Assembly (NCBI GenBank): GCA_029062895.1
Contig: JAIDPF010000029.1
Coordinates: forward strand, 1 to 57,233
DNA: 57,233 bases
Direction of reading: 5' to 3'
DNA from: Lachnospiraceae bacterium
GTDB taxonomy: Bacteria; Bacillota; Clostridia; Lachnospirales; Lachnospiraceae
This document shows positions 7,919 through 32,554 of this stretch, one piece after another. Within the stretch, counting starts at the first letter, position 1; each line of letters opens with the position of its first letter. A program made the translations under genes and the position numbers. Under the pieces are notes generated by a model. The model was not told the DNA's origin and did no database searches. It saw only the letters and a list, made by a program, of their open reading frames with translations.

Positions 7919-7986
7919 CTTTCTTCTCCTAAAACTGTATGGTCATTCAAACTACTCTTTTTGCGCTTTTTAATTATGAAATCCAG

Positions 7987-8081
7987 TTTACATAACTCTT
8001 CGTTAGCACACCGATGTTCCAAAAACATCATAAATGAAATCATTTTTGGAACATCGGTGTGCTAACTTCAAGTTATGTAAA
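7987..8081. repeat. Covarying hairpin element, copy A
   Basis: A near-perfect inverted repeat in the 230-base gap between hisD and the lipoprotein gene. The inner arms are 24 bp and perfect (8002-8025 with 8043-8066). A three-base symmetric internal loop separates them from outer arms of 11 bp (7987-7997 with 8071-8081). The 17-base loop is CATCATAAATGAAATCA. A second copy lies at 19911-20007. The two stems differ at four base pairs, every one compensated, while loop and outer arms are nearly unchanged. No U-tract follows, so it is not a typical terminator. The rest of the gap is AT-rich with nothing else recognised. Confidence 0.9.
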
Positions 8082-8148
8082 ACTTCACTCCAATTCCTAA
8101 TAGAATATATTATACAATGTGCCTATTAAAAAAGCAAGGCAACGCAAA

Positions 8149-19807: not shown

Positions 19808-19910
19808 ATTGGTTACTCCTTGTGCTACTTATTTCTTCGGATCATATCATATAGATTCCGGTATTTTTGCTGTTCAATCTATCATACGGTTTAAATCTGG
19901 TTTAATTCCG

Positions 19911-20007
19911 GTTTACATAACTCTTTGTTTGTACATCTATGTTCCAAAAAAATCATAAATGAAATCATTTTTGGAACATAGATGTACAAACTTCGAGTTA
20001 TGCAAAC
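19911..20007. repeat. Covarying hairpin element, copy B
   Basis: This is the second copy of the element at 7987-8081, here between parE and parC. The inner arms are 24 bp and perfect (19927-19950 with 19968-19991), the loop is AATCATAAATGAAATCA, and the outer arms are GTTTACATAACTC with one mismatch. Compared with copy A, four stem positions differ on each arm, all keeping Watson-Crick pairing. Just downstream, at about 20008-20031, parts of the outer arm (AAGCTATGCAAA) are tandemly repeated. The rest of the 244-base gap shows nothing further. Confidence 0.9.
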
Positions 20008-20051
20008 CTCAAGCTATGCAAATCTCAAGCAAGGATCCATCTATGCTCCTC

Positions 20052-32249: not shown

Positions 32250-32554
32250 CGCAGGCATGCGCTTAACTATTGCTGCTCTTGTACAATAGACGCGCAGCGC
32301 AAACATGCCTGCGATGTATTGTCAATGCTGCGCAAATCATTATCTGTGCCTATGCATTGGAAGGAAATTAGAAATTCTTAACATTCCTATCCTATACCCA
32401 GCAATTTCGGAACACGATGTTCCGAAAAGGGGCAATTGAGCCATGGATGGCGAATTTGCCCCTTTTGCGTCCGTCTTCCACAACTTCAATTAGGAATGTT
32501 TAGAATTTCTTATTTCCGTACAGCAGCATAGGCACAGATGATGATTTGCGCAGC
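32250..32554. repeat. Nested imperfect palindrome, non-coding
   Basis: About 305 bases between recG and the FakA-like gene contain stacked inverted repeats: outer arms 32327-32355 with 32526-32554 (28 of 29 matched), middle arms 32363-32389 with 32491-32517 (25 of 27), inner arms 32425-32435 with 32456-32466 (11 of 11), and a small hairpin 32405-32427 (9-bp arms). To the left is another pair, CGCAGGCATG (32250-32259) and CATGCCTGCG (32304-32313). No open frame of note crosses it. It may be a structured RNA or a palindromic mobile remnant. Confidence 0.85.

What the first reader, a model, noticed from the sequence alone, without database searches (positions are those of the whole stretch)
7987..8081. 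Hairpin element with fully compensated stem changes between two copies
Copy A (here) and copy B (19911-20007) share an almost identical 17-base loop (16 of 17), near-identical outer arms and the same geometry: 24-bp perfect inner stem, 3-nt symmetric internal loop, 11-13 bp outer stem. The inner stems differ at four positions on each arm, and in each case pairing is kept. Conserved loop with a covarying stem is what a functional RNA or a protein-bound cruciform would show. An alternative is a palindromic mobile element whose arms are homogenised by template switching. Both copies lie in intergenic gaps, in minus-strand transcripts (hisD to lipoprotein; parE to parC).
Basis: seen in the sequence. 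Interest (0 to 1): 0.72.

Follow-up and report, generated by a model that had tools for sequence, protein, structure and literature searches.

The report
Repeated chromosomal hairpin with self-matching arms
Short DNA sequences that fold back on themselves are scattered between genes in a few related uncultured bacteria, and their two arms keep matching each other even as the letters change, which looks more like an old family of repeated DNA hairpins than like a regulatory RNA, though the RNA reading is not closed.

Summary
The hairpin occurs at 44 listed places (2 are half copies at contig ends) in this 3.07 Mb Lachnospiraceae genome and in 5 of 24 same-genus genomes, own included. A covariance model matched 1 of 397 sampled family genomes, the window's own. 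In 79 aligned copies the inner stem is 98.5% paired and 18 of its 24 pairs change on both sides. In 33 orthologous comparisons, 39 stem pairs changed with compensation and 31 on one side. The hairpin diverges 3.5-12.6% by block against 23.7% at fourfold sites of flanking genes, so it is held. G.U is no commoner than A.C (11 v 20) and both orientations to genes occur, which speaks against RNA. A weak lean to transcribed-strand G.U (15 v 10; 12 v 4 at orthologous loci, p 0.08) speaks for it. A 3-nt rewrite and an in-place inversion look like template switching. Best reading: a clade-specific, REPIN-like DNA hairpin repeat with arms kept complementary by arm-to-arm copying plus selection. No RAYT over cut-off in the five carriers.

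The parts
7985..8083 (.). copy A, whole 99-nt hairpin in the family register
7985..7998 (+). copy A left outer arm
   Evidence: alignment
8002..8025 (+). copy A left inner arm (24 nt; family positions 18-30 variable between copies, 31-41 nearly constant)
8026..8042 (+). copy A conserved 17-nt loop; 8028-8037 can form a mini-hairpin whose closing pair covaries between copies
8043..8066 (+). copy A right inner arm
8070..8083 (+). copy A right outer arm
19910..20008 (.). copy B, whole 99-nt hairpin
19910..19923 (+). copy B left outer arm
19927..19950 (+). copy B left inner arm
19951..19967 (+). copy B conserved loop
19968..19991 (+). copy B right inner arm
19995..20008 (+). copy B right outer arm

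Best explanation
It is a clade-specific, interspersed intergenic palindromic repeat (REPIN-like) that acts, if it acts at all, as a DNA hairpin or cruciform. SHOWN: many copies per genome; inheritance at orthologous loci across species; pairing kept while letters change; divergence well below fourfold sites of the flanking genes. INFERRED: (1) a mutation in one arm is either lost or copied into the other arm when replication or repair synthesis switches template at the extruded hairpin, which gives compensated changes in one step; (2) selection (through a mobilising enzyme in the past, or a host DNA-binding factor) keeps the outer arms, the loop-proximal block and the loop, while the 13-bp middle of the stem mainly has to pair; (3) copies are now largely inherited vertically and are lost by deletion.
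For: Copies. Covariation: (261 both-sided cells; 58.7 +/- 6.6 in shuffles, 18-61 with slid partners; inner helix 98.5% paired). Orthologues: (of 792 pair cells over 33 comparisons: 716 same, 39 compensated, 31 one-sided, 1 double without pairing, 5 gaps). Of 37 compensated site changes 19 are of transversion type, which cannot pass through G.U. No overall G.U excess (11 G.T, 20 A.C, 10 other of 1944 cells in 81 copies). Footprints: copy L026 has its right internal-loop triplet rewritten to the complement of the left arm, while its orthologue L103 has the common triplet; in-place inversion with an extra foot at the L030 locus. Constraint: (outer arm 35/726, inner 31-41 25/721, loop 29/560, inner 18-30 86/858, internal loop 19/198, foot 25/198) against 1420/5991 fourfold sites and 789/3150 non-identical in the 50-nt flanks, gaps counted. 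Hairpin-free sites with what look like arm or foot remnants. Template switching as a keeper of stems is published (PMC8794818; abstract and one section seen), and compensatory changes in REPIN hairpins too (PMC3116915; passages seen).
Against: Only one polarised multi-base rewrite and one clear inversion were found, so arm copying is shown as possible, not as the main route. Against the DNA reading: one-sided changes at orthologous loci lean to A.C, which is G.U on the minus strand (15 v 4 at comparison level, p 0.02; 14 v 7 counted once a locus, p 0.19), and by transcription context 12 v 4 lean to sense-strand G.U (p 0.08); in the '--' group of 33 copies the lean is 8 v 2. No clean empty site or target-site duplication was found, so mobility is inferred from copy number. 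Tandem repeats beside the hairpin are not enriched (10 of 86 flanks v 16 of 172 controls). The very foot (positions 1-3) diverges 12.6%, so the ends are less held than the rest.
Confidence: 0.55

Rival explanations
1. A cis-acting RNA hairpin in mRNAs (intercistronic processing or stabilising element, for example an RNase III site), with classical compensatory covariation.
For: Copies mostly lie between co-directional genes (33 '--' and 33 '++' of 84). Strong covariation. Lean to sense-strand G.U: 12 v 4 at orthologous loci (p 0.08), 15 v 10 over 81 copies (p 0.42), 8 v 2 in '--' copies.
Against: Over 81 copies G.T 11 v A.C 20, so G.U-type cells of the + strand are under 1% of the inner stem; both orientations to genes although the loop is not symmetric; 19 of 37 compensations are of transversion type; no terminator-like site at either window copy; no Rfam family over its gathering score here.
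Confidence: 0.25
2. A non-functional mobile palindrome (MITE or REPIN remnant) whose arms are homogenised purely by mutation bias.
For: Copy number; a longer form with short terminal inverted repeats; very similar long-form copies; template-switch-like footprints; hairpin-free sites with remnants.
Against: Outer arms, loop-proximal block and loop diverge 3.5-5.2% while fourfold sites at the same loci diverge 23.7% and immediate flanks 25%. Detection bias is an unlikely cause: the search still listed matches of 68-76% identity, mostly reverse-strand self matches.
Confidence: 0.12
3. Concerted evolution: ectopic gene conversion among copies keeps the loop and loop-proximal block alike and moves whole stems.
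For: In one species (G016) the loop closing pair is G-C in 7 of 12 readable copies, in 0 of 95 readable copies elsewhere. Of 11 orthologue pairs tested, the changed arm equals another copy's in 2 and is closer to some other copy than to its orthologue in 7.
Against: Stems often stay locus-specific between species; in 9 of 11 pairs no other held copy has the changed arm exactly; the G-C loops come with different neighbouring letters, which needs very short tracts.
Confidence: 0.08

Closest known systems
REPINs (REP doublets forming hairpins; Bertels and Rainey 2011, PMC3116915; passages seen)
   Same: Extragenic, many copies, two conserved inverted ends, less conserved but paired spacer, compensatory changes reported as common.
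   Different: No RAYT over the model's cut-off in the five carriers; no GTAG/CGTC tag seen at the feet; here the loop and the loop-proximal stem are also conserved; copies are traced at orthologous loci across species.
Stem-loop-containing repeat families of bacteria (Cozzuto et al. 2008, PMC2267715; outline, abstract and one passage seen)
   Same: Intergenic, foldable repeat family confined to a clade.
   Different: That survey covers 40 genomes; the words compensat-, covaria- and orthologous do not occur in its held text. That ERIC, NEMIS or bcr1 belong to this class is recalled or from a search listing.
Template-switch maintained hairpins (Monttinen and Loytynoja 2022, PMC8794818; abstract and one section seen)
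   Same: One-step compensated, multi-base changes and loop inversion are discussed as footprints.
   Different: Studied there in RNA genes; here a repeated intergenic element.
TwoAYGGAY RNA (RF01731)
   Same: Also a multi-copy structured element in this genome, sometimes beside the hairpin.
   Different: Different sequence and structure; its model does not call the hairpin.

Membership tests
REPIN/REP | two conserved inverted ends with a paired spacer, mostly intergenic, many copies | tested here: met
   (the outermost three positions are the least conserved part)
REPIN/REP | RAYT (REP-associated tyrosine transposase) in the genome, often flanked by the repeat | tested here: not met
   NF047646 over its cut-off in 0 of 5 carriers and in 1 of 3 non-carriers tested; the one Y1 protein found in the window's genome is IS200-type (155.1 bits v 37.6 for the RAYT model), and no copy is listed on its contig C8. 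Three carriers are 72%, 82% and 88% complete, so absence is not proven.
REPIN/REP | unpaired GTAG or CGTC tag at the foot | tested here: not met
   feet read by eye: often GTCC on the left and TCATNGAC on the right
MITE | terminal inverted repeats shared with an autonomous transposon and a target-site duplication | tested here: inconclusive
   long form has short terminal repeats; no target-site duplication seen; no systematic search for an autonomous partner beyond Y1 transposases
structured RNA | covariation with G.U intermediates on the transcribed strand | tested here: inconclusive
   covariation met; G.U rare and no commoner than A.C; sense-strand lean 15 v 10, p 0.42 and 12 v 4, p 0.08
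intrinsic terminator | GC-rich stem followed by a U run | tested here: not met
   (the two window copies only)
Rfam families | score over a family's gathering cut-off | tested here: not met
   (only TwoAYGGAY, elsewhere in the window)

The most novel reading that the evidence does not exclude
The hairpins are docking sites, as extruded DNA hairpins, for an unknown trans-acting factor of this clade that reads the outer arms and the loop. In one species the factor's preference changed and the loop closing pair moved from T-A to G-C in parallel at several loci (7 of 12 readable copies; 3 G-C and 1 A-T at loci where the orthologues have T-A), each time with both letters changed.
Probability: 0.2. 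Interest if true: 0.7.

Novelty: new member of a known kind. Interest (0 to 1): 0.42.

Why it matters
It is a natural test bed for an open question: are compensated stem changes proof of a functional RNA, or can replication copy one arm into the other? Here dozens of copies in five species show near-perfect covariation with very few G.U cells and with some template-switch-like footprints, so covariation statistics alone would file it as a structured RNA. The constraint, with no transposase tied to it so far, also asks what host factor holds it.

Tried and rejected
Mobilising enzyme: Y1_Tnp (PF01797) is present in 15 of 35 genus genomes and in 3 of the 5 carriers, so it does not follow the hairpin; the window genome's copy is IS200-type, with one short unrelated inverted repeat nearby. 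Other transposase families were not searched.

Empty sites: the flanks of 44 non-G016 entries could be placed in the G016 stretches and 17 of them were printed; later the G000 flanks were run against G012, G016 and other held loci. Sites without a hairpin looked like remnants or were too diverged to define a boundary.

Fork slippage: tandem copies of the feet are striking at one G012 site but are not enriched overall; dropped. Viral origin: 0 viral contigs with the exact loop-block pattern; close variants would be missed.

One search used a too-loose pattern and is not used; one search crashed and was redone. Literature: searches listed no paper on this family; they cover only the held library.

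Rows dropped: of 128 places, those with N or a length other than 99 were left out; of 88 distinct 99-mers 4 were out of register (84 left); 3 nested or broken ones more were dropped (81), and 2 of these (from L071 and L035) were not given to the alignment (79). The dropped ones include the worst-paired copies, so pairing percentages are for intact copies. The orthologue counts use 21 of the 25 groups, without the rows of L154 and L147 (N inside); the four groups left out (L015, L017, L035, L037) are nested, broken or one-flank cases, but two groups kept (L034, and L080 for one partner) also rest on one flank. This favours tidy pairs. In some searches and 83 copy L151 of G016 was counted twice, so '8 of 13' there is 7 of 12.

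Full report
OBSERVATION. Both hairpins are present as described and are far more stable than shuffled sequence. In the family register they are 99 nt: outer arms of 14, a 3x3 internal loop, an inner stem of 24 bp and a loop of 17. The window is a whole contig (C38) of a 3.07 Mb, 115-contig genome. The named contigs that hold the loop block are from uncultured Lachnospiraceae.

A FAMILY. One search lists 40 separate places and adds four, two of them half copies that end at contig ends (contig lengths), so 44 places; only part of the candidates was scored, so this is a lower bound. Of 24 same-genus genomes, own included, 5 carry it, and 0 of 16 other same-order genomes. A covariance model from 79 copies matched only the window's own genome among 397 family genomes (stricter filters). 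By shared stretches the four other carriers are the assemblies UBA7481, UBA7480 and SRR14411266_bin.2 (4 of 6 sample loci each) and SRR14411253_bin.14 (1 of 6). An exact pattern found 0 viral contigs.

COVARIATION. On 79 distinct copies 95.9% of cells are paired (shuffles 86.5 +/- 0.3), 22 of 41 pairs change on both sides and 261 cells do (shuffles 58.7 +/- 6.6; slid partners 18-61). The structure came from these sequences, and the copies are related, so the controls flatter it. The inner helix is 98.5% paired; pair 25-75 shows four and pair 28-72 three Watson-Crick types with no G.U. The loop holds a further covarying pair around CATAAATG: T-A, G-C, C-G or A-T. The most conserved blocks are the outer arms from position 4 inwards, positions 31-41 and the loop; positions 18-30 vary but stay paired.

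SAME LOCUS, DIFFERENT SPECIES. In 33 comparisons at 21 orthologous loci, 716 inner-stem pairs were unchanged, 39 compensated, 31 changed on one side (15 A.C, 4 G.T, 12 other), 1 on both sides without pairing, and 5 had gaps; 14 of 21 loci show more than one Watson-Crick state at a pair. Of 37 compensated site changes 19 are of transversion type. Divergence is 12.6% at the foot (1-3), 4.8% in the outer arms (4-14), 9.6% in the internal loop, 10.0% at 18-30, 3.5% at 31-41 and 5.2% in the loop, against 23.7% at fourfold sites of the flanking genes and 25% in the adjacent 50-nt flanks with gaps counted. The comparisons share reference copies and are not independent. Of 11 pairs tested for conversion, the changed arm equals another copy's in 2 and is closer to some other copy than to its orthologue in 7.

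RNA OR DNA. If pairing were held in RNA, G.U should be tolerated on the transcribed strand. Over 81 copies there are 11 G.T, 20 A.C and 10 other mismatches in 1944 cells. By transcription context 15 are sense-strand G.U and 10 the opposite (p 0.42). At orthologous loci, counted once a locus, it is 12 v 4 (p 0.08), and in the '--' copies 8 v 2. So there is a lean towards RNA that is not significant, in a stem where such cells are rare on either strand. Context was judged by a simple ORF caller: of 84 copies, orthologues included, 33 lie between minus genes, 33 between plus genes, 6 convergent, 4 divergent, 8 at edges. No terminator-like site is at either window copy.

MUTATIONAL FOOTPRINTS. Against its orthologue L103, copy L026 has the internal-loop triplet TTC changed to AAA, the complement of the opposite arm; L015 shows a like state, GAA against TTC. 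At the L030 locus the G016 copy is inverted relative to the flanks and the G000 side has an extra foot. One search listed 2 inverted pairs against 66 same-orientation pairs with both flanks; the second (L006/L098) rests on one flank and I read it as two neighbouring hairpins. The G000 sequence has an N run near L030, so assembly error is not excluded. At the parC-parE site G012 carries tandem copies of both feet, and G016 keeps only a left-arm remnant that ends at a short direct repeat. Other likely remnants are at the L131 and L129 sites in G016 and the L014 site in G012. Tandem repeats are not enriched overall.

LONG FORM. Some copies carry longer flanks with short terminal repeats. Long-form copies sit mostly between plus genes (20 '++', 2 '--') and short ones mostly between minus genes (31 '--', 13 '++') (p 3e-6, orthologues not removed), which I cannot explain.

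KNOWN KINDS. REPINs are the closest: PMC3116915 reports conserved inverted ends and common compensatory changes (passages). PMC3733652 takes GT pairing in REP stems as support for a transcribed role (abstract and passages), a mark that is weak here. RAYT association is not met as far as tested: 0 of 5 carriers over the NF047646 cut-off, three of them incomplete. PMC8794818 (abstract and one section) supplies the template-switch mechanism. I file it as a new family of the intergenic stem-loop repeat kind that works like a REPIN, not as a REPIN.

VERDICT. Real, repeated and constrained, best read at the DNA level, with the RNA reading still open. The function is unproven.

Noticed in passing
window 32356-32524 (+), and right flanks of L012, L015, L027: TwoAYGGAY RNA (RF01731) is itself a repeat: 10 matches in G000, 20 and 17 in two other genus members (G002, G040). 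Three of the 10 G000 copies lie 54-133 nt to the right of a long-form hairpin, same strand (0.04 expected within 150 nt).
   Followed up: partly
right flanks of L021, L025, L028, L029, L032, L039, L040: A second GC-rich palindromic repeat of about 150 bp (cagttgtgcaatgcaga...ctgtgttgcgcaacgga) often follows the hairpin.
   Followed up: no
L040, L115, L151, L160: Some copies have a small extra hairpin nested in the loop-side stem, as template switching might leave.
   Followed up: partly
G016 copies (for example L153, L064, L060, L146): Loop closing pair is G-C in 7 of 12 readable copies of this species and A-T in one more, against T-A in nearly all readable copies elsewhere.
   Followed up: partly
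L111 (C50 end), L112 (C101 end): Two contigs of the window's genome end inside the hairpin, so copy counts from such assemblies are lower bounds.
   Followed up: no
G016 sites of L124 and L026: A short palindrome resembling the long-form ends without the hairpin, perhaps a separate small repeat.
   Followed up: no
long-form against short-form copies: The two forms differ strongly in orientation to the neighbouring genes (20 '++' and 2 '--' against 13 '++' and 31 '--').
   Followed up: no
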